In this document: one piece after another, positions 706 through 26,922 of the stretch
How the letters are laid out: each line of letters opens with the position of its first letter
Position numbering within the stretch: position 1 is the stretch's first letter
Origin: Watersipora subatra
Lineage: Eukaryota > Bryozoa > Gymnolaemata > Cheilostomatida > Watersiporidae
Reading direction: 5' to 3'
DNA: 64,000 nucleotides
NCBI RefSeq assembly: GCF_963576615.1
Contig: NC_088717.1
Location: 1,327,001-1,391,000, forward strand
Notes under the pieces: generated by a model
What the model was told of the DNA's origin: nothing
What the model saw: the letters and a program-made list of their open reading frames with translations, nothing else
The model's database searches: none
Translations under genes and position numbers: made by a program

Positions 706-1766
706 TGAGAATGAAAAGGATGAGGAGGAGGAATGGCATGGGGCTAGGTTATTTTTACTGTTGTATTGATAGGCCTTTCCTATCATCAATCATAAATCTT
801 TGGGTTCATATGTCATATCACAAAATGGTGTCATATATCTAGTAGCAATAAGCTACCTTGTCTACTGTTTATAATATTTATAAGGAAAAACAGTATATAT
901 TATCTACACTTGGCACTTCTAAGCAATATTTCTATAATAATGCATTCAGCACAACTAATGACCCACTAGATTATATTCTTACTGGCATAAGCTCAGCATG
1001 GCACAATATTTGTTTCCATTTCATTTAAGTAGCCATCAACACGCATGTACATTTTCAGCGCAAGTTTCTACATTGCTTTCACAACATCAATCCAAGAACT
1101 CGTTCATTGTAAGCAGTTGTTTTTAATGCATCCAAAACCCGAATATTTTAGTTTCCAATAAGATAGATCGTAGCTCAGTTATATCAAAGACGAAAGTCTT
1201 AAGATTGCTAACTCAGCCTAGCGTTGCTATAAGTGCGTACACTCCTTCATGTAGTAGTTTTACACACTTCCTTAACACCGCTTCTTCTTTTGTATCCAAG
1301 AGAAACTTGTTCATCCAAAGAGATACTGGTCTAGGAAAGAAATACTAGTCAACGAGAGTCATGATTAGTTGTTACATCAAATATCTCATTATGTGCATCT
1401 CATTCTCAATCTGAAGCATGAGCAGAAATTATGTAAAAATTAATTTTAGTACGCCGATTGAAAAGTTGAGTTGCTAAAGCAGTATTGGGAGTCCCAATCT
1501 GTTAACGTAATTAACAGCAAATATGTCATTAACTGCAACCGCTGAATAACGACTTGATAAAACTCTATTGTGAGGACACATGACCCTTCATACCTTAAAT
1601 GTTGAGGCTTCCATTCTAATTTTATAATTAAAATCTGTTTTTGTAATTAGCAGAAGAAACTAAGCATTAATTCAGGAGATAAACAGACTGATGACATCAT
1701 CAGATGGAATATCCTAATTGTGTTACAGGTATTACTATCTTGTGAAAAGAATGAATATTAATTTGT

Positions 1767-3767: not shown

Positions 3768-4553
3768 AATAGCTGGTCCAATACCTTGCAACTATGGTAC
3801 ATCTCTCCTACAATGTTTCCTGTCCATCTCTCCTTTATAATAGCTGGCCCAATACCTTGCAACTATGGTACATCTCTCCTACAATGTTTCCTGTCCATCT
3901 CCCCTTTATAATAGCTGGTCCAATACCTTGCAACTATGGTACATCTCTCCTACAATGTTTCCTGTCCATCTCTCCTTTATAATAGCTGGCCCAATACCTT
4001 GCAACTATGGTACATCTCTCGTACAATGTTTTCTGTCCATCTCCCCTTTATAATAGCTGGTCCAATACCTTGCAACTATGGTACATCTCTCCTACAATGT
4101 TTCCTGTCCATCTCCCCTTTATAATAGCTGGCCCAATACCATGCAACTATGGTGCATCTCTCCTGCAATGTTTCCTGTCCATCTCCTCTTTATAATAACT
4201 GGTCCAATACCTTGCAACTATGGTACATCTCTCGTACAATGTTTTCTGTCCATCTCCCCTTTATAATAGCTGGTCCAATACTATGCAACTATGGTACATC
4301 TCTTCTGCAATGTTTCCTGTCCATCGCCCCTTTATAATAGTTGGCCCAATACCTTGCAACTATGGTACATCACTCCCACAATGCTTCCTGTCCATCTCCC
4401 CTATATAATAGCTGCTCCAATACCTTGCAACTATGGTACATCTCTCGTACAATGTTTTCTGTCCATCTCCCCTTTATAATAGCTGGTCCAATACTATGCA
4501 ACTATGGTACATCTCTCCTGCAATGTTTCCTGTCTATTTCTCCTTTATAATAA
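3768..4553 (+). repeat. 71-bp satellite array, about 11 units
   Basis: The unit contains gtccaataccttgcaactat, then ggtacatctctcctacaatg, then tttcctgtccatctcccctt, then tataatagctg. Units are exactly 71 bases with scattered substitutions. The inverted counterpart at 14732-18358 has about 51 units. Because 71 is not a multiple of 3, each unit opens a spurious 62-codon frame. Confidence 0.95.
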
Positions 4554-5849
4554 GCATATTGTTGTGCTCTTTCTGTATATGAAGTCTGAGATATCAGTCA
4601 GTACACAAATCATACTGTTAACACCTGTTGTTGTTTCACCCTAGTTGGTCATGCACGATATGAGTGCCACTAATATAACATATCAATACACTCAAATCTT
4701 CCTTCATCTGCCTGCTTCAATCTTTTTTGTAATTACATTAAATTTGGTAGAAGATAGACCTTCACCGCATGCTGCTGTTTTATAAATCACTGTAATGTTG
4801 TTAATTGTGTACTTAATGGCATTCAGTGATTTGATAGATGATTCTTTATTCGATCTGAAAGTTTAAAAATACTAAATAAAATATAGATTTATACTCACAA
4901 ATAACTCCACAGGATATGCTTTTTGTGTCTCATATTCATGCAATGGAGCAAGCAAGCTTACATAAGTAGAAGGACACTAGTGTTTAATGTCAGACTAAAG
5001 ATGACAAATTATATTGTATATGTCGATATCACATAACATATGAGAGCTTATTCAAAAGATTTTTATATATTGATACTTACAAATATTGGCAATGATGACA
5101 CTCAATAAATAGTAGATGCATGTATGGGTTTATGTATTGCATATAAATGTATGTAGTTTCAGCTAAGCTATAAGGATATTATTGGAAATCTATTGGATAT
5201 CCTTAGAAAACCAGCCATGGCAATATTAAGTTATGGATGAAGCTACTAAACACTGATGGCTGGTTGATAATGATTAGCTGGGTTCATCAAGGTGGGACTT
5301 AGATGATCTCGAGTATTCGTTGTTATTTTGCTCTATAAAGTGATATAACATTAAATAAAGCTATATACAATTAGAAAGTTTTACTTTTATATATAATATA
5401 TCTGCAATGGATACTACTGGTGTTGATAGAAGCACTCTGCTCATGAAATCTTTAAAAATGTCAATTTATTATAGCAACATTTGATCAATATCAACCGAGA
5501 ATAGTGAACTTCATCAAAGTTTACTATAAATTCTTTTATAACTTCTCTGAACAATCCATGGCATAAACACAAAAAGTTTAAGTAAATGTAATGCAGATTT
5601 CTTGTAACTAAGTCAATCCAATTAGAATTTTTTCAACAAATGTAAAGCAGTAGCGACATTAGTTTACCAAATTCAAAGTCATTACTTTTATATAACATCA
5701 ATATTCAATCATGACCACTAGTATGCTATAAAACTCCTGATAATCTCTTTTAAAAACGTTTGTTTTCAGAGATAAACGCAGACATGAAATTGAAATTTGT
5801 TCACAACAGTTACTGTTATATCAAACACTAAAGCAAATACAGGTGTGAA

Positions 5850-6620: not shown

Positions 6621-7970
6621 ATTGAGAATGAAAAGGATGAGGAGGAGGAATGGCACGCAGCTAGGTTACTTTTACTGTTGTATTCCTAGGCCTCTTCTAT
6701 CATCAATCATAAATCTTTGGGTTCATATGTCATTTCAAAAAATGGTGTCATATATCTAGTAGCAATAAGCTACCTTGTCTGCTGTGTATAATATTTATAA
6801 GGAAAAACAGTATATATTATCTACACTTGGCACTTCTAAGCAGTATTTTCATAATAACGCATTCAGCACAACTAATAACCTGCTAGATTATATTCTTACT
6901 GGAATAAGCTCAGCATGGCACAATATTTGTTTCCATTTCATTCAGGTAGCCATCAACACGCATGTACATTTTCAGCGCATGTTTCTACATTGCTTTCACA
7001 ACATCAATCCAAGAACTCGCTCATTGTAAGCAGTTGTTTTTAATGCATCCAAAACCCGAGTTTTTGAGTTTCCAATAAGATAGATCGCAGCTCAGTTATA
7101 TCAAAGACGGAAGTCTTAAGATTGCTAACTCAGTCCAGTGTTGTTTAGAGTGCGTACGCTCCTTCATGTAATAGTTTTACACGCTTCCTCAACATCACTT
7201 CTTCTTTTGCATCCAAGAGATACTTGTTTATCCAAGAGATACTTGTTCATACAAGAGATACTTGTCTAGGAAAGAAATACTAGTCAATGAAATTTATGGT
7301 TAGTTGTTACATCAAGTATCTCATTATGTGCAGCTCATTCTGAATCTGAAGCATGTGCAGAAATTATGTAAAAATTAATTTTAGTATGCCGATTGAAAAG
7401 TTGAATTTCTAAAGCAGTATTACGAGTCCCAATCTGTTAACGTAATTAACAGCAAATATGTCATTAACTGCAACCGCTGAATAACAACTTGATAAAACTC
7501 CATTGTGAGAACACATGACTCTTCATACCTTAAATGTTGAGGCTTCCATTCTAATTTTATAACTAAAATCTATTTTTGTAATTAGCAGAAGAAACTAAGC
7601 ATTAATTCAGGAGACAAACAGGCTGATTACATCATCAGATAGAATATCCTAATTGTGTTACAGGTATTAACATCTTCTGAAAAGAATGAATATTAATTTG
7701 TGAGTATGATGATGTCCTACTTGTGAGTTCAAATGCACTTCTATGTAAACCTAAAAGTTTTCTGTAGAACGGCAAGTGATAAACTGTAAAGTTTCTTTAG
7801 GAGTGCCGGGTGTAAAAACGATGGTTTTGTTATAAACCTGTACTGGTCATTAGTATTCTGTTGCATTTTATTTACTCAACTTGTATTGGGACTAACAAAA
7901 ACTCCTTTATTTTAAAAAGACATTAATATTTACGTCAGCTTTGTATAATAAACAATTAATAATCATCATT

Positions 7971-13340: not shown

Positions 13341-14731
13341 AATATCTCAAAAGTCCAGCTTTAGTTCTTTAGTGTTTGATATTACAGTAACTGTTGTAAA
13401 CAACTTTTAATTCCATGTCTGCGTTTTTCTCTGATAAAGCTTTTTAAAAAAGAATCTCATGAATTTTATAGCATACTAGTGGTCATGATCGAATATTGCT
13501 CTAATATACCAATGATGATTTCAAATTTGGTAGATTAATTTAGCTATACTGCTTTACGTTTGTAGAAAAATTCTAATTGTATTGACTTAGTAACACAACA
13601 TCTGCATCACGTTTATTTAAACTTCCCATGAATATGCAATAAGATTTTCAAAGATGTTCTAAGAGAATTTCCAAGAAAACTTTAATGAAGTTCACGATTC
13701 AGTGGTAATACTGACCAAATGTTGTTTTAATAAATGGACATTATGAAGGAGTTCACAAGCTGAATTCTTCTATCAACACCAGTTGCATCCATAACAGATA
13801 TATTATATATAAGAGTAACGCTTCCTATTTGTATATAACGTTACCTAATGTTATATCACTTTATAGAGCAAAATAACAACAGATACTTGTGATCATCTAA
13901 ATACCACTTTGATGGATCTAGCTATTCATATACAGTATATGCAGTTACTCATATCAATCAGTTGTCAGTGTCTAATGACCTCATCCATCACCTAGATTGC
14001 CTTGGCTCGTTTTCCAAGGATATCCCATGGATTTCCCAAAAATATCCGATTGCTTTCTTAAAATAATAGCATCATCCATCACCTAGATTGCCATGGCTGG
14101 ATTTGCCAAGGATATTCCATAAATTTTTTAAAGCTACAAACATGCAATACATAAACACATTCATGCATTTGCTATTTTTTGAGTATCATCATTTCCAATA
14201 TTTTTAAGTATCGATATATAAACATCTTGTGAATAAACTGTCATATGCAATGCAATATAAACATATACAATATTGTTTGTCATCTCTAATCTGATATATA
14301 ACCCTAGTGTCTTTCTACTTACGCAAGCTTGCTTTCTATGTTGCATGAATATGAGACGCAAAAAGCATATCATTGCGAATTATTTGTGAGTATAAATTTA
14401 CATTATATTAGGTATTTTAAAACTTTCAGACAGTATAGAAAACTATCTATCAAATCACTGAATGCCATTAGGTACACAGTTAACAACATTACAGTGACTT
14501 ATTAAGCAGCAGCATGCGGTGAAGGTCTATCTTCTACCAAATTTAATGTAATGACAAAAAAAGATTGAAGCAGGCAGATGAAGGAAGATTTGAGTGTATT
14601 GATATGTTATATTAGTGGCACTCATATCGTGCGTGACTAGCTAGGAAGAAACAACAACAAATGTTAACAGTATGATTTCTGTACTGACTGATATCTCAGA
14701 CTTCATATACAGAAAGAGCACAACAATTTGC

Positions 14732-17700
14732 TTATTATAAAGGAGAGATGGACAGGAAACATCGTAGGAGAGATGTACCATAGTTGCAAGGTATTGGACC
14801 AGCTATTATAAAGGTGAGATGGACAGGAAACATCATAGGAGAGATGTACCATAGTTGCGAGGTATTGTACCAGCTATTATAAAGGGGAGATGAACAGGAA
14901 ACATCATAGGAGAGATGTACTATAGTTGCAAGGTATTGGACCAGCTATTATAAAGGAGAGATGGACAGGAAACATTGTAGGAGAGATGTACCATAGTTGC
15001 ATAGTATTGGGCCAGCTATTATAAAGGGGAGATGGACAGGAAACATTGTAGGAGAGATGTACCATAGTTGCAAGGTATTGGACCAGCTATTATAAAGGGG
15101 AGATGGACAGGAAACATCATAGGAGAGATGTACCATAGTTGCAAAGTATTGGACTAGCTATTATAAAGGGGAGATGGACAGGAAACATCATAGCAGATAT
15201 GTACCATAGTTGCAAGGTATTAGACCAGCTATTATAAAGGAGAGATGGACAGGAAACATAGTAGGAGAGATGTACCATAATTGCAAGGTATTGGACCAGC
15301 TATTATAAAGGGGAGATGGACAGGAAACATCATAGGAGAGATGTACTATAGTTGCAAGGTATTGGACCAGCTATTATAAAGGGGAGATGGACAGGAAACA
15401 TCATAGGAGAGATGTACCATAGTTGCAAAGTATTGGACTAGCTATTATAAAGGGGAGATGGACAGGAAACATCATAGCAGATATGTACCATAGTTGCAAG
15501 GTATTAGACCAGCTATTATAAAGGAGAGATGGACAGGAAACATTGTAGGAGAGATGTACCATAATTGCAAGGTATTGGACCAGCTATTATAAAGGGGAGA
15601 TGGACAGGAAACATCATAGGAGAGATGTACTATAGTTGCAAGGTATTGGACCAGCTATTATAAAGGAGAGATGGACAGGAAACATTGTAGGAGAGATGTA
15701 CCATAGTTGCAAGGTATTGGGCCAGCTATTATAAAGGGGAGATGGACAGGAAACATCATAGGAGAGATGTACCATAGTTGCAAAGTATTGGACTAGCTAT
15801 TATAAAGGGGAGATGGACAGGAAACATCATAGCAGATATGTACCATAGTTGCAAGGTATTGGACTAGCTATTATAAAGGGGAGATGGACAGGAAACATTG
15901 TAGGAGAGATGTACCATAGTTGCAAGGTATTGGACCAGCTACTATAAAGGAGAGATGGACAGGAAACATTGTAGGAGAGATGTACTATAGTTGCAAGGTA
16001 TTGGACCAGCTATTATAAAGGGGAGATGGACAGGAAACATCATAGGAGAGATGTACCATAGTTGCAAAGTATTGGACTAGCTATTATAAAGGGGAGATGG
16101 ACAGGAAACATCATAGCAGATATGTACCATAGTTGCAAGGTATTAGACCAGCTATTATAAAGGAGAGATGGACAGGAAACATTGTAGGAGAGATGTACCA
16201 TAGTTGCAAGGTATTGGACCAGCTATTATAAAGGGGAGATGGACAGGAAACATTGTAAGAGAGATGTACCATAGTTGCAAGGTATTGGACCAGCTATTAT
16301 AAAGGGGAGATGGACAGGAAACATCATAGGAGAGATGTACTATAGTTGCAAGGTATTGGACCAGCTATTATAAAGGGGCGATGGACAGGAAACATTGTAA
16401 GAGAGATGTACCATAGTTGCAAGGTATTAGACCAGCTACTATAAAGGGGAGATAGACAGGAAACATTGCAGGAGAGATGCACCATAGTTGCAAGGTATTG
16501 GACCAGCTATTATAAAGGGGAGATGGACAGGAAACATTGTAAGAGAGATGTACCATAGTTGCAAGGTATTGGACCAGCTATTATAAAGGAGAGATGGACA
16601 GGAAACATTGTAGGAGAGATGTACTATAGTTGCAAGGTATTGGACCAGCTATTATAAAGGGGAGATGGACAGGAAACATCATAGGAGAGATGTACCATAG
16701 TTGCAAAGTATTGGACTAGCTATTATAAAGGGGAGATGGACAGGAAACATCATAGCAGATATGTACCATAGTTGCAAGGTATTAGACTAGCTATTATAAA
16801 GAGGAGATGGTCAGGAAACATTGTAGGAGAGATGTACCATAGTTGCAAGGTATTGGACCAGCTATTATAAAGGGGAGATGGACAGGAAACATTGTAGGAG
16901 AGATGTACCATAGTTGCAAGGTATTGGACCAGCTATTATAAAGGGGAGATGGACAGGAAACATTGTAAGAGAGATGTACCATAGTTGCAAGGTATTGGAC
17001 CAGCTATTATAAAGGAGAGATGGACAGGAAACATTGTAGGAGAGATGTACTATAGTTGCAAGGTATTGGACCAGCTATTATAAAGGGGAGATGGACAGGA
17101 AACATCATAGGAGAGATGTACCATAGTTGCAAAGTATTGGACTAGCTATTATAAAGGGGAGATGGACAGGAAACATCATAGCAGATATGTACCATAGTTG
17201 CAAGGTATTAGACCAGCTATTATAAAGGAGAGATGGACAGGAAACATTGTAGGAGAGATGTACCATAATTGCAAGGTATTGGACCAGCTATTATAAAGGG
17301 GAGATGGACAGGAAACATCATAGGAGAGATGTACTATAGTTGCAAGGTATTGGACCAGCTACTATAAAGGGGAGATGGACAGGAAACATTGTAGGAGAGA
17401 TGTACCATAGTTGCAAGGTATTGGGCCAGCTATTATAAAGGGGAGATGGACAGGAAACATCATAGGAGAGATGTACTATAGTTGCAAGGTATTGGACCAG
17501 CTATTATAAAGGGGAGATGGACAGGAAACATTGTAGGAGAGATGTACCATAGTTGCAAGGTATTGGACCAGTTATTATAAAGGGGAGATGGACAGGAAAC
17601 ATTGTAGGAGAGATGTACCATAGTTGCAAGGTATTGCACCAGCTATTATAAAGGGGAGATGGACAGGAAACATTGTAAGAGAGATGTACCATAGTTGCAA

Positions 17701-18358
17701 GGTATTGGACCAGCTATTATAAAGGAGAGATGGACAGGAAACATTGTAGGAGAGATGTACTATAGTTGCAAGGTATTGGACCAGCTATTATAAAGGGGAG
17801 ATGGACAGGAAACATCATAGGAGAGATGTACCATAGTTGCAAAGTATTGGACTAGCTATTATAAAGGGGAGATGGACAGGAAACATCATAGCAGATATGT
17901 ACCATAGTTGCAAGGTATTAGACCAGCTATTATAAAGGAGAGATGGACAGGAAACATTGTAGGAGAGATGTACCATAATTGCAAGGTATTGGACCAGCTA
18001 TTATAAAGGGGAGATGGACAGGAAACATCATAGGAGAGATGTACTATAGTTGCAAGGTATTGGACCAGCTACTATAAAGGGGAGATGGACAGGAAACATT
18101 GTAGGAGAGATGTACCATAGTTGCAAGGTATTGGGCCAGCTATTATAAAGGGGAGATGGACAGGAAACATCATAGGAGAGATGTACTATAGTTGCAAGGT
18201 ATTGGACCAGCTATTATAAAGGGGCGATGGACAGGAAACATTGTAGGAGAGATGTACCATAGTTGCAAGGTATTGGACCAGTTATTATAAAGGGGAGATG
18301 GACAGGAAACATTGTAGGAGAGATGTACCATAGTTGCAAGGTATTGCACCAGCTATTG
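14732..18358 (-). repeat. 71-bp satellite array, about 51 units, with higher-order structure
   Basis: Same satellite as 3768-4553, in inverse orientation. A diagnostic variant (catagcagatatg) occurs at 15189, 15473, 15828, 16112, 16751, 17177 and 17887. All spacings are exact multiples of 71 (4, 5, 4, 9, 6 and 10 units), so no indel has accumulated over 2.7 kb. The last two copies delimit a 710-bp block whose sequence is repeated almost unchanged. This points to recent amplification in multi-unit blocks. Confidence 0.95.
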
Positions 18359-19608: not shown

Positions 19609-21036
19609 AATGATGATTATTGATTGTTTATTATGCAAAGCTGACGTAGATCTTAATGTCCTTTTAAAATAAAGGAGTTTTGGTTAGTCTCCAAAACAAT
19701 ACAAGTTAAGTAGATAAAATACAACAGAATACTAATGATCATAACCGATTTAACGGATTTTGGTTTATAACAAAACCATTGATTTCACACCTTAAAGGTC
19801 ACTTGAAGGGCAACCTTAAAGGCACTTTACAGTTGATCACTTGCCGCTCTACAGAAAACTTTTAGGTTTACATAAAAGTGCTTTTGAACTCACAAGTAGG
19901 ACAACATCATACTCACAAATTAATATTCATTCTTTTCAGAAGATGGTAATACCAGTAACACAATTAGGATATTCCATCTGATGATGTCATCAGTCTGTTT
20001 GTCTCCTGAATTAATGCTTAGTTTCTTCTGCTAAATACAAAAATAGATTTTAGTTATAAAATTAGAATGGAAGCCTCAACAGTTAAGGTATGAAGGGTCA
20101 TGTGTCCTCACAATAGAGTTTTATCAAGTTGTTATTCAGCGGTTGCAGTTAATGACATATTTGCTGTTAATTACGTTAACAGATTGGGACTCGTAATACT
20201 GCTTTAGAAATTCAACTTCTCAATCGGCGTACTAAAATTAATTTTTACATAATTTCTGCACATGCTTAAGATTGAGAATGAGCTGCACATAATGAGATAC
20301 TTGATGTAACAACTAACCATGACTTTCGTTGACTACAATTTTTCCTAGACCAGTATCTCTTGGATGAACAAGTATCTCTTGGATGAAAAAGTATCTCTTG
20401 GATGAAAAAGTATCTCTTGGATGAAAAAGTATCTCTTGGATGAAAAAGTATCTTTTATAAGAAAAAAGAGAAGCAGTGTTGAGGAAACGTGTAAAACTAT
20501 TACATGAAGGAGCGTACCCACTCTAAACAACGCTGGGCTGAGTTAGCAATCTTAGGACTTTTGTCTTTGATATAACTGAGCTACCATCTATCTTATTGGA
20601 AACTCAAAAATTTGGGTTTTGGATGCATTAAAAACAACAGTTTATAATGAATGAGTTCTTGGATTAATGTTGTGAAAGCAATGTGGAAACTTATGTTGAA
20701 AATGTACATGAGTGTTGATGGCTACCTGATTGAAATGGAAACAAATATTGTGCCATTCTGGGCTTATGCCAGTAAGTTGATAAACTAGCATGTCATTAGT
20801 TGTGTTGAATGTATTATGATAGAAATATTGCTTAGAAGTGCCAAGTGTAGATAATATATACTGTTTTTCCTTATAAATATTATACATAGAAGACAGAGTA
20901 GCTTAATGCTATTAGATATATGACACCATTTTTGTGATATGACATATGAAACCAAAGATTTATGATTGATGATAGGAAAGGCCTATCAATACAACAATAA
21001 AAATAACTTAGCTGCGTGCCATTTTTCCTCCTCTAT

Positions 21037-21235: not shown

Positions 21236-21487
21236 CAAGTGACAGAAGAAAATAGAACATTTAATCCTATTTGGGCCGACTTGTTTGTTTTCACCACTGA
21301 TGAGACTGGTTCACCAGTTTGCTTAATATGTTATGGGAAATTTGCAAAGAACAAAAAGTCAAATGTCGCAAGACACTTTCAGAATAAACATGCAGACCTT
21401 GTTCAAAAATATCCAGAAGGAGATGAGAGAAAAAAGGCTGTTTTGGAACTGATGCGTAAGGCTAATTTGAGCAAAAATCTGGTATAG
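21236..21487 (+). pseudogene. BED-type zinc-finger ORF fragment, no in-frame ATG
   Basis: The open frame of about 83 codons encodes FNPIWADLFVF, then PVCLICYGKFAKNKKSN, then ARHFQNKHAD, then LVQKYPEGDERKKAV. The finger is C-x2-C-x14-H-x4-H with the aromatic lead-in typical of BED/hAT-derived proteins (ZBED-like or GTF2IRD2-like N-termini). An in-frame TGA sits just upstream (21233-21235). The only early ATG is in another frame, so this is either an exon of a spliced gene or, more likely, a truncated transposase-derived remnant. It ends with TAG right at the block shared with 23660 and 27790, as if inserted at the duplication junction. Confidence 0.65.
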
Positions 21488-21887
21488 CTATTTAGTATAA
21501 AATCTTCAATTAAGAATAATTCAAGGAACATGCCTGCTCACCATGCCATAGGACCTCATGCTACATCTTATACTCTCTTAGAAGATGTTTAGGTAATGTC
21601 TTGTTTAGCCTTTAGTGAGTTTACTTTACTCAGCACTGATGCCCAGATTACAGTTTTGCATCACATCTGTTCCGAATTTAAAAGCAAAATCTGTTAAAGT
21701 AATATATATATTACAGGTATACAATTCCTATAAGGTATACAATTCACCATATAAAAGTGATTTATAAAACAGCAGCAGACATGAGATGACGAGCTGTCAT
21801 CTGGTGGATTTTACATCTGATATCCAATCATGTGCATCTTCTAAAGAATAGGAATACCAACTCTGATGAACTGGAATCCCTGAATGT

Positions 21888-21921
21888 GGGCGGAGATTAT
21901 GTCAGGATGGTTTGTATATAA
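21888..21921 (+). promoter_or_regulatory. GC box plus TATA box of microprotein gene copy 1
   Basis: GGGCGG at 21888-21893 and TATATAA at 21915-21921. Both are conserved in sequence and spacing in the second copy (26218-26251). The leader that follows has no ATG before the proposed start codon. Confidence 0.7.
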
Positions 21922-22064
21922 GCTGCAGACAGCCACTCTACCATCAGAACTACAACTCATTACAAGAGACAGAGGTCTTCACACAGACTACAACTCACCG
22001 GCAGAGATAAAAGTCACTACCAGATCTACTAGTCAGCACCAGAGCTTCAAGTTACTCAAACAGA

Positions 22065-22354
22065 ATGGCCAGATTATTTACCAGCAGTGCAATCGATTTC
22101 ACCAATCAGCATGTAGACAATATCGGTGAGTTTATATTCTCTAAAGAATAGTTTAAAAATAGCTAGAGTAATAAACTTATACCTGTAGCTAAACAAAATA
22201 ACTGTTCATCAGTACTTAGATATTCAGACACCATCTCTATGTCTATGAAAGTTGAACAGCTCTTTTGAAACCTTCATAATAACTTGTCTATCTACTGTAT
22301 ATTGTAGAGAATCCTGATACATTTGAAAATCAAGAATATCCTACAGACGAGTAA
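22065..22354 (+). CDS. Two-exon 35-residue acidic microprotein, copy 1 (unrecognised)
   Basis: I do not recognise this protein. Exon 1 is 22065-22125 and exon 2 is 22308-22354. The donor is G|GTGAGT and the acceptor tgtatattgtag|AG, joined in phase 1 to make a GAG codon. The product starts MARLFTSSAI and ends YPTDE, with a centre rich in N, E and D (for example NIENPDTFENQE). It has no signal peptide or membrane segment and is predicted to be soluble. The start was chosen because it is the first ATG after the TATA box, about 145 bases downstream. A second complete copy lies 4330 bases downstream with the same exon lengths and an intron of the same length (182 bases). AATAAA follows 232 bases after the stop. 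It could instead be the leader of a longer alternatively spliced gene, or a non-coding transcript. Confidence 0.55.
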
Positions 22355-22585
22355 CCAACGCAGACCATGCTATCTACAGGCATAAACTGAGGAGTTATCT
22401 CATCTTCATATTATAATCTAACAGTATATAACAGTCTTCTCTGTTGAATATTTATCTTCAACTAAAAAGCTCCCTCTCTTGGATATTTTATTAATGAAAT
22501 TTAAAGAAGCTACTGCATTTGTGTATTTATTTGTATTATTTTATTCTATTTAAATATTTAAATGGTTTCTTCTATAAGTTTACAT

Positions 22586-22591
22586 AATAAA
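22586..22591 (+). terminator. Polyadenylation signal, microprotein gene copy 1
   Basis: AATAAA within tacataataaaagc. The same context occurs after copy 2 (26917-26922), supporting this as the 3' end of the transcript. Confidence 0.6.
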
Positions 22592-24479: not shown

Positions 24480-24790
24480 AGTGACCTTCTATAAGACTCA
24501 ACAAGCATATCATATTGAACTATTTGTGAGTATAAATCTATACTCTATTTAATTTGTATGAAGCTTTTGGACTAAATTGGTAAACTTCTATCTAAAAACT
24601 GAATGCCATAAGGTACAGAATAAACCATATTACAATGATTTATTAAACAGCAGTACAGTAGATACATGATATGACGAGCTGTAGTTTGGTAGATTTTGTT
24701 TATAATATCCAGTCATGTGCATCTTCTAAAGAATAGGAATACCAGCTCTGATGAGACTAGCACAGAACTGGAATCCCTGAATAATATGCT
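24480..24790 (+). pseudogene. Decayed upstream piece of a third microprotein gene block
   Basis: Matches the region just 5' of both microprotein genes, for example catgtgcatcttctaaagaa and gaactggaatccctgaat. Homology stops before the GC box, TATA box and exons. It is therefore a promoter-proximal remnant without coding sequence. Confidence 0.7.
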
Positions 24791-25850: not shown

Positions 25851-26217
25851 CAAAGTCATTTATCATGCTAGAAACATAGTTAACTTCTACTATAGTAAAA
25901 ATATTTAATATCAGATGTTCTCAGCACCAGTACTGACATTTTATGTGACTCAAAAAGCATATCATGTGGAATTATTTGTGAGTGTAAATCTATATTTTAT
26001 TTAGTGTTTTAGAAGCTTTCAGACCAAATAGATAATCATCTATCTCATAACTGAATGTCTTAAGGTACACATTTAGCATTATAGTAATTTATAAAACAGC
26101 AGCAGACACATGATATGATGAGCCGTCATCGGGTGGATTTTACATCTAGTGTCTAATCATGTGCATCTTCTAAAGAATTTGGAATACCAACTCTGATGAA
26201 CTGGAATCCTTAAATGT

Positions 26218-26251
26218 GGGCGGAGATTATGTCAAGATAGTTGGTATATAA
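26218..26251 (+). promoter_or_regulatory. GC box plus TATA box of microprotein gene copy 2
   Basis: GGGCGG at 26218-26223 and TATATAA at 26245-26251, with the same spacing as copy 1. The downstream leader again contains no ATG before the proposed start. Confidence 0.7.
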
Positions 26252-26394
26252 GCTTTGGACAGTCTTTCCACCGTCAGAACTGCTATTCACCACAAGAGGC
26301 AGAGATCTTTACACAGATTACGACTCATCGGCATAGATAAAAGTCACCACCAGATCTAAAAGTCAGCACCAGAGCTTCAAGTTACTCAAACAGA

Positions 26395-26684
26395 ATGGCA
26401 AGATTATTTACCCACAGAGCAATCGATTGCACCAATCAGCACGAAGAAAATATCGGTGAGTTTATTTTCTTTAGAGAATAATTTAGGAATAGCTAGAGTA
26501 ATGAACTTATACATTTAGTTAAACAGATCAACTGTTCATCAGTACATGGATAGTCATAGACCATCTCTATGTCCATGAAAGTGAAACAGCTCTTTTGAAA
26601 CCTTCATAATAATTTGTTTATCTACTGTACGTTGTAGAGAATCCTGATACATTGGAAAATCAAGAAAATCCTACCGACGAGTAA
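26395..26684 (+). CDS. Two-exon 35-residue acidic microprotein, copy 2 (unrecognised)
   Basis: Exon 1 is 26395-26455 and exon 2 is 26638-26684, with the same G|GTGAGT donor and an acceptor ending gttgtag|AG. The phase-1 join is intact. The product starts MARLFTHRAI, contains the shared NIENPDT segment and ends NPTDE. It differs from copy 1 at 7 of 35 residues (positions 7, 8, 12, 17, 18, 26 and 31) with no indel. By my count there are 8 replacement and 3 silent base differences. This is close to neutral expectation, so the two copies alone do not demonstrate purifying selection. Function is unknown. Confidence 0.55.
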
Positions 26685-26916
26685 TCAACACAGACCATGC
26701 TATCTGCAGGCTTAAACTGAGGAGTTATCTCATCTCCATATTGTAATCTAACAGTAAATAACAGGCTTCTCCATTGAATATATATCTTCAAACAAAACGT
26801 TCCTTTACTCAGATATTTTATAAATAAATTTTAAAGAAGCCTAATGCATTTCTGTTTTTATTTATATTATTTTATTGTATCTAGATGTTTAAATCCTTTC
26901 CTCTATAAAGTTACAT

Positions 26917-26922
26917 AATAAA
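26917..26922 (+). terminator. Polyadenylation signal, microprotein gene copy 2
   Basis: AATAAA within ttacataataaaggc, matching the copy 1 position. A second AATAAA follows about 25 bases later. Confidence 0.6.

What the first reader, a model, noticed from the sequence alone, without database searches (positions are those of the whole stretch)
21888..22591. Unrecognised two-exon gene for a 35-residue acidic microprotein
Seen directly: GC box, TATA box, ATG-free leader, ATG, G|GTGAGT donor, tgtag|AG acceptor in matching phase, stop, AATAAA, all in order over 700 bases. The product (MARLFTSSAI... to YPTDE) has no signal peptide and matches no family I know. Standard ORF finding misses it because each exon is under 65 bases. 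This is the strongest candidate for something undescribed here.
Basis: partly seen in the sequence, partly recalled or inferred. Interest (0 to 1): 0.75.

Follow-up and report, generated by a model that had tools for sequence, protein, structure and literature searches.

The report
Four-copy microprotein gene cluster in bryozoan
A tiny two-exon gene of about 35 codons, present in four intact neighbouring copies in a moss-animal (bryozoan) genome, looks like a real but young and probably unannotated protein-coding gene family whose expression and role remain to be shown.

Summary
In detail: GC box, TATA box, ATG-free leader, ATG, donor, in-phase acceptor, stop and AATAAA lie in order over about 700 bases. 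The host is, by two matches, the bryozoan Watersipora subatra. A second copy lies at 26216-26922; a genome search added two, 2-36 kb left of the window. All four keep ATG, splice sites and open frame; coding gaps are 6 and 3 nt only. Signal columns vary in 2 of 46, other noncoding columns in 307 of 926. Exon 2 shows third-position bias in the predicted frame only. Omega and replacement tests are not significant; coding sequence is not clearly better conserved than the intron. No relative was found in Pfam, NCBIfam, PDB or one protein-database search. No RNA or peptide data could be reached, so transcription, splicing and translation are inferred. Best reading: a small, young, locally duplicated family making acidic, probably disordered peptides of 35-38 residues; the molecular role is a guess. 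It is an orphan-gene candidate of a known kind, of modest interest. A second product from a retained intron is possible but untested.

The parts
21886..21895 (+). GC box, copy A (GTGGGCGGAG)
   Evidence: read; 9 of 10 columns invariant in four paralogues
21915..21922 (+). TATA box, copy A
   Evidence: 7 of 8 columns invariant in four paralogues
22065..22125 (+). coding part of exon 1, copy A (MARLFTSSAIDFTNQHVDNI + first base of E)
   Evidence: A at -3, ATG, G at +4 and donor invariant in 4 of 4
22126..22307 (+). 182-nt GT-AG intron, copy A
   Evidence: G|GTGAGT and TGTAG|AG invariant in 4 of 4 copies
22308..22354 (+). coding part of exon 2 with stop, copy A
   Evidence: third-position bias in this frame, P 0.004
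22586..22591 (+). AATAAA polyadenylation signal, copy A
   Evidence: invariant in 4 of 4
26216..26252 (+). GC box (26216-26225) and TATA box (26245-26252), copy B
   Evidence: read; aligned
26395..26455 (+). coding part of exon 1, copy B
26456..26637 (+). 182-nt intron, copy B
26638..26684 (+). coding part of exon 2 with stop, copy B
26917..26922 (+). AATAAA, copy B
24604..24782 (+). truncated copy of the upstream region only (no GC box, TATA or coding part matched)
   Evidence: nhmmer E 1.6e-33, model positions 2-164

Best explanation
A young, locally duplicated protein-coding gene family (four members on C10, 1.291-1.354 Mb of what is by two matches the Watersipora subatra assembly). Each gene has a compact promoter with a TATA or TATA-like box, a 5' leader of about 105-213 nt by model, one phase-1 intron and a short exon 2, and would yield a 35-38-residue acidic, hydrophilic, probably disordered peptide without an evident signal sequence, hence intracellular. 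Shown: the anatomy, its conservation in four copies, and the local cluster. Inferred: transcription start at the TATA box, splicing, translation. Guess: the peptide works as a small partner-binding regulator, with the conserved MARLFT...ID.TNQH segment as binding face and the acidic tail for solubility or charge contacts. Several copies would raise dose and are perhaps kept alike by exchange: A and C are 93% alike in leader and coding exon 1 and 89% in the intron, but 74-83% in the other parts.
For: Four of four copies keep ATG with A at -3 and G at +4, donor, acceptor, TAA stop and frame. The ORF is the longest in 4 of 4 modelled mRNAs, and no other ORF of 15 or more codons is shared by all four. 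The only coding gaps are 6 and 3 nt, while noncoding gaps are of many lengths. Signals are conserved beyond background (2 of 46 versus 307 of 926, P 4e-6). Coding columns vary less than UTR columns (20 of 108 versus 123 of 348, P 0.0005). Variable coding columns by codon position are 2, 6, 12 of 36 each (P 0.0065). Exon 2 alone gives 1, 1, 7 of 15, 16, 16 in the predicted frame, P 0.004, and no such bias in the other two frames. Whole-genome DNA and protein searches matched only one stretch of C10, and the 18-base start pattern had 4 exact matches, all in the four genes.
Against: No RNA or peptide evidence was reachable. Coding constraint is weak by other tests: omega free versus 1 on an assumed ((A,B),(C,D)) tree gives 2 x delta lnL 3.0 (about P 0.08); replacement changes 15 of 23 against 17.3 expected, P 0.15. 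Exon 1 alone shows no codon-position bias (P 0.26). Coding columns are not clearly better conserved than the intron (20 of 108 versus 39 of 163, P 0.18). Random substitutions would leave no stop in about 23% of trials. Two in-frame gaps are few. Gene conversion between copies would make the four not fully independent. Copy D has an upstream ATG in its leader and TATACAAG instead of TATATAAG. With one or two mismatches the start pattern also hits elsewhere in the genome (163 forward and 333 reverse matches in all, many in repeats on C5); those places were not checked for an exon 2.
Confidence: 0.62

Rival explanations
1. A spliced long non-coding RNA family: the promoter, splice sites and poly(A) site are real and kept, while the 35-38-codon ORF is incidental and stays open by recent common descent and gene conversion.
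For: Signals are conserved more strongly than coding positions (2 of 46 versus 20 of 108); the replacement and omega tests are not significant; intron about as conserved as coding sequence; the public annotation of this genome lists 17,199 non-coding genes (PMC12902671, passages seen).
Against: Third-position bias of exon 2 in the predicted frame only (P 0.004), gaps of 6 and 3 nt only in coding sequence, A at -3 and G at +4 of the ATG in 4 of 4, ORF longest in 4 of 4 modelled mRNAs.
Confidence: 0.25
2. An unspliced (or alternatively unspliced) short gene: translation runs past the 'donor' and gives MARLF...GEFIF(S/F)(K/R)E, 28-35 residues, ending a few codons into the intron.
For: That reading is open in 4 of 4 copies and stops at the same codon in 3 of 4 (copy D reads five residues further); the intron interior varies in 39 of 163 columns, UTRs in 123 of 348.
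Against: Donor and acceptor are invariant (0 of 14 columns vary); exon 2 shows the best coding signal; C and D carry minisatellite sequence in the intron yet keep the acceptor and exon 2 frame.
Confidence: 0.08
3. A decaying segmental duplication or mobile-element fragment with no expressed product; the gene-like order is accidental.
For: The region is rich in minisatellites and repeats; fragments of the unit's two ends occur without the gene at several places.
Against: No dispersed copies were found: matches of the DNA and peptide searches lie in one stretch of C10 (best candidates only are scored); none of the four coding copies is broken; signal conservation P 4e-6.
Confidence: 0.05

Closest known systems
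Lineage-specific (orphan) microprotein genes, as a kind (recalled)
   Same: Very short ORF, no database relative found, local duplicates, weak but positive sign of selection on the product.
   Different: Expression and translation not shown here; presence or absence in other bryozoans not tested.
Beta-thymosins (recalled, not searched by name)
   Same: Small, hydrophilic intracellular peptide of about 40 residues without signal sequence.
   Different: The actin-binding LKKTET motif (recalled) is absent by inspection, and Pfam gives no family for 4 of 4 members.
Spliced lncRNA genes with small ORFs (recalled)
   Same: Short two-exon polyadenylated transcript model with a short ORF.
   Different: Codon-position bias in exon 2 and frame-keeping gaps point to coding.

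Membership tests
Orphan microprotein gene family | ORF under 100 codons with a complete gene structure | tested here: met
   35-38 codons with promoter, splice, stop and poly(A) signals in 4 of 4 copies
Orphan microprotein gene family | Selection on the encoded sequence | tested here: inconclusive
   codon-position bias P 0.0065 overall and P 0.004 in exon 2, but P 0.26 in exon 1; omega and replacement tests not significant
Orphan microprotein gene family | No relatives outside the lineage | tested here: inconclusive
Orphan microprotein gene family | Transcribed and translated | not testable with these tools
   no reads or spectra held
Secreted peptide (antimicrobial, neuropeptide precursor) | N-terminal signal sequence with a hydrophobic core | tested here: not met
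   by inspection no hydrophobic run near the N-terminus; whole-peptide GRAVY -0.99 to -1.46; no signal-peptide predictor was run
Transposable element | Dispersed copies in the genome | tested here: not met
   DNA and peptide matches only within about 70 kb of C10 (best candidates only scored, very common words skipped)
Beta-thymosin | Matches the family profile / LKKTET motif | tested here: not met
   Pfam 0 families for 4 of 4 members; motif (recalled) absent by inspection

The most novel reading that the evidence does not exclude
A bryozoan-restricted microprotein family born and amplified at one site, which by splicing or intron retention makes two conserved alternative short peptides (acidic tail ...ENPD..NQE.PT.. 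or ...GEFIF(S/F)(K/R)E) from the same start, giving a minimal two-product switch.
Probability: 0.08. Interest if true: 0.55.

Novelty: new member of a known kind. Interest (0 to 1): 0.36.

Why it matters
If expressed, it is a multi-copy gene family that ORF- and homology-based annotation is likely to miss, in a phylum with few genomes and few studied genes. It makes a clean test case of how short genes with introns arise and spread in animals. If not translated, it shows how strongly gene-like anatomy can mislead.

Tried and rejected
Rejected: a dispersed repeat or transposon (matches of the DNA and peptide searches in one stretch of C10); a structured RNA family (Rfam 0 matches at gathering score in the window); a known protein family (Pfam and NCBIfam 0 families for 4 of 4 members; PDB one match at E 0.59, taken as chance); leader coding (in-frame stops in A, B and D, none in C; leader gaps of 1, 4, 92 and 19 nt). 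The idea of a rapidly induced, unstable mRNA was not supported: ATTTA in the 3' UTR exceeds shuffles in A (5, P 0.01) and C (5, P 0.03) but not in B (1, P 0.80) or D (4, P 0.15). A scan for eleven simple promoter motifs gave CANNTG in 4 of 4, and GGGCGG, CCAAT and TTCTAAAGAA in 3 of 4 each; no inducer can be read from that.

Context: six-frame Pfam scans of the whole window, X at stops, gave only a reverse-transcriptase match (cut-off 1e-4 for the first set, 0.01 for the other two). These scans are insensitive: they did not list the zinc-finger match that a single ORF gave at E 1.2e-06. COX1 was not found in the assembly, so HSP70 was used to name the host. A separate 1-kb repeat with an 86-codon frame was dropped as a gene, because the frame is cut to 58 codons in one of three copies. 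Recalled fish and frog repeat motifs found nothing in the window. Literature: searches for Bryozoa with microprotein (0 papers), orphan genes with small open reading frames and Lophotrochozoa (0), and broader ones showed nothing on this family in the listings; only listings were seen, except passages of PMC12902671.

Full report
What is there. The 61 + 47 nt of coding sequence give MARLFTSSAIDFTNQHVDNIENPDTFENQEYPTDE. A second copy at 26216-26922 lies in an aligned stretch of about 1.1 kb, 84% identical.

Where it is. The window is C10:1327001-1391000 of a 783,720,542-base assembly in 239 contigs. A 577-residue stretch of a heat-shock-70 gene of that assembly is 100% identical to a protein of Watersipora subatra, and the published W. 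subatra assembly spans 783.70 Mb in 240 scaffolds, with the mitochondrial genome in the same submission (PMC12902671, passages seen). The contig length given with that protein (75,932,528) differs slightly from C3 here (75,923,518), so the version may differ. The host is therefore most likely this cheilostome bryozoan (lineage).

The family. A whole-genome DNA search with copy A found two further copies on the minus strand, left of the window. Copy C has its ATG at C10:1324611 and copy D at C10:1292423. Their products are MARLFTNSAIDCTNQHVDNTNTENPDKLDNQEHPTEDD and MARLFTNRVIDCTNQHGDNINTENPDKLDNQEHPTEDD. Their introns are longer, about 1.3 and 0.7 kb, in good part minisatellite sequence (read). 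A genome-wide peptide search and a search with copy D's exon 2 and downstream region matched only this stretch of C10. A pattern for the first 18 coding bases had 4 exact matches, all in the four genes; with up to two mismatches it had 496 matches in all, and those elsewhere were not checked further. A local scan of 264 kb, left flank plus window, found four coding copies, several fragments of the unit's ends, and two weak peptide matches (E 0.97 and 0.31) taken as chance. The right flank beyond the window was not fetched; it was covered only by the whole-genome searches, which score the best candidates.

Is it more than chance? The four copies were aligned, with the inserted middle of the C and D introns left out. 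Of 46 columns in the named signals 2 vary, against 307 of 926 other noncoding columns (P 4e-6). Coding columns vary in 20 of 108, UTR columns in 123 of 348 (P 0.0005), intron interior in 39 of 163 (not different from coding, P 0.18). Variable coding columns by codon position are 2, 6, 12 of 36 each (P 0.0065). Exon 2 carries the signal: 1, 1, 7 of 15, 16, 16 in the predicted frame (P 0.004) and no such bias in the other two frames; exon 1 alone is not significant (P 0.26). Coding gaps are 6 and 3 nt only; noncoding gaps are of many lengths. Against this, a codon model with free omega beats omega 1 by 2 x delta lnL 3.0 only, on an assumed tree, and replacement changes (15 of 23) are not significantly fewer than random placement gives (17.3 expected, P 0.15). 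Pairwise divergences shift along the unit: A and C differ by 7% in the leader and in coding exon 1, by 12% in the intron, and by 17-26% upstream, in coding exon 2, the 3' UTR and downstream. This suggests gene conversion and lowers independence.

How it most likely works. TATA-directed transcription gives modelled spliced mRNAs of 480-723 nt (start set 30 nt after the TATA box and end 20 nt after the start of AATAAA, both assumptions). The ORF is the longest in each of the four, and no other ORF of 15 or more codons is common to all. The peptides are acidic (pI 4.05-4.39, charge -6.3 to -7.4) and very hydrophilic, without a hydrophobic N-terminal run by inspection, so an intracellular, mostly disordered product is likely (inference; no predictor was run). 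Invariant residues are MARLFT, ID, TNQH, N, ENPD, NQE and PT. I commit, at low confidence, to a partner-binding regulator whose dose is raised by several similar copies; nothing here tests that.

Rivals. A spliced non-coding RNA is the main rival (about 0.25): it explains the strong splice and promoter conservation and the weak replacement tests, but not the frame-specific bias in exon 2. An unspliced product MARLF...GEFIF(S/F)(K/R)E is open in 4 of 4 copies and could be an isoform. A dead duplication is least likely.

Known or new. No Pfam or NCBIfam family was listed for any of 4 members at a cut-off of E 10 (HMMER's filters drop most matches above 0.1), no PDB chain beyond one match at E 0.59, and one protein-database search found no candidate sharing three 5-residue words (on a 42-residue query with seven leader residues, one of them mistyped). 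That database does hold W. subatra and other animal proteins, but products this short are often not annotated (recalled). The kind, a lineage-limited microprotein gene family, is known; this family did not appear in the listings of the searches named.

Verdict. Interest is modest: a good, cheaply testable orphan-gene candidate.

Noticed in passing
window 14733-18357 and 3768-4552: Long 71-bp minisatellite array (51 copies) with an inverted partner array (11 copies) about 10-13 kb away; fragments of the gene unit's ends lie right beside both arrays.
   Followed up: partly
window 4753-5105 and 14180-14531; C10:1316389-1316744: The start and the end of the gene unit occur side by side in opposite orientation without the gene between them, at three places: gene-less remnants or a small inverted element used by the duplications.
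   Followed up: partly
window 21236-21487: 83-codon frame with a Spin-doc type zinc-finger match (PF18658, E 1.2e-06, just over the cut-off) shortly upstream of copy A; possibly a transposon-derived exon.
   Followed up: no
window 722-1679, 6639-7615, 20001-21033: Three copies of a repeat of about 1 kb (88-95% alike in parts); its 86-codon frame is open in two copies and cut to 58 codons in the third.
   Followed up: partly
introns of copies C and D (L010, L009): By eye, a minisatellite with a unit of about 33 bases, close to CTACTTACTGTAGGGGAGAGTAGGGCAAGTTGT, fills much of the intron; most units carry a TGTAG or TGCAG that resembles an acceptor, so there are many possible decoys.
   Followed up: no
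C3:7.90-7.91 Mb and 8.77-8.88 Mb of the same genome: Eleven HSP70 copies in both orientations in two groups, each with an open long exon covering about positions 28-598 of the 599-position profile.
   Followed up: no
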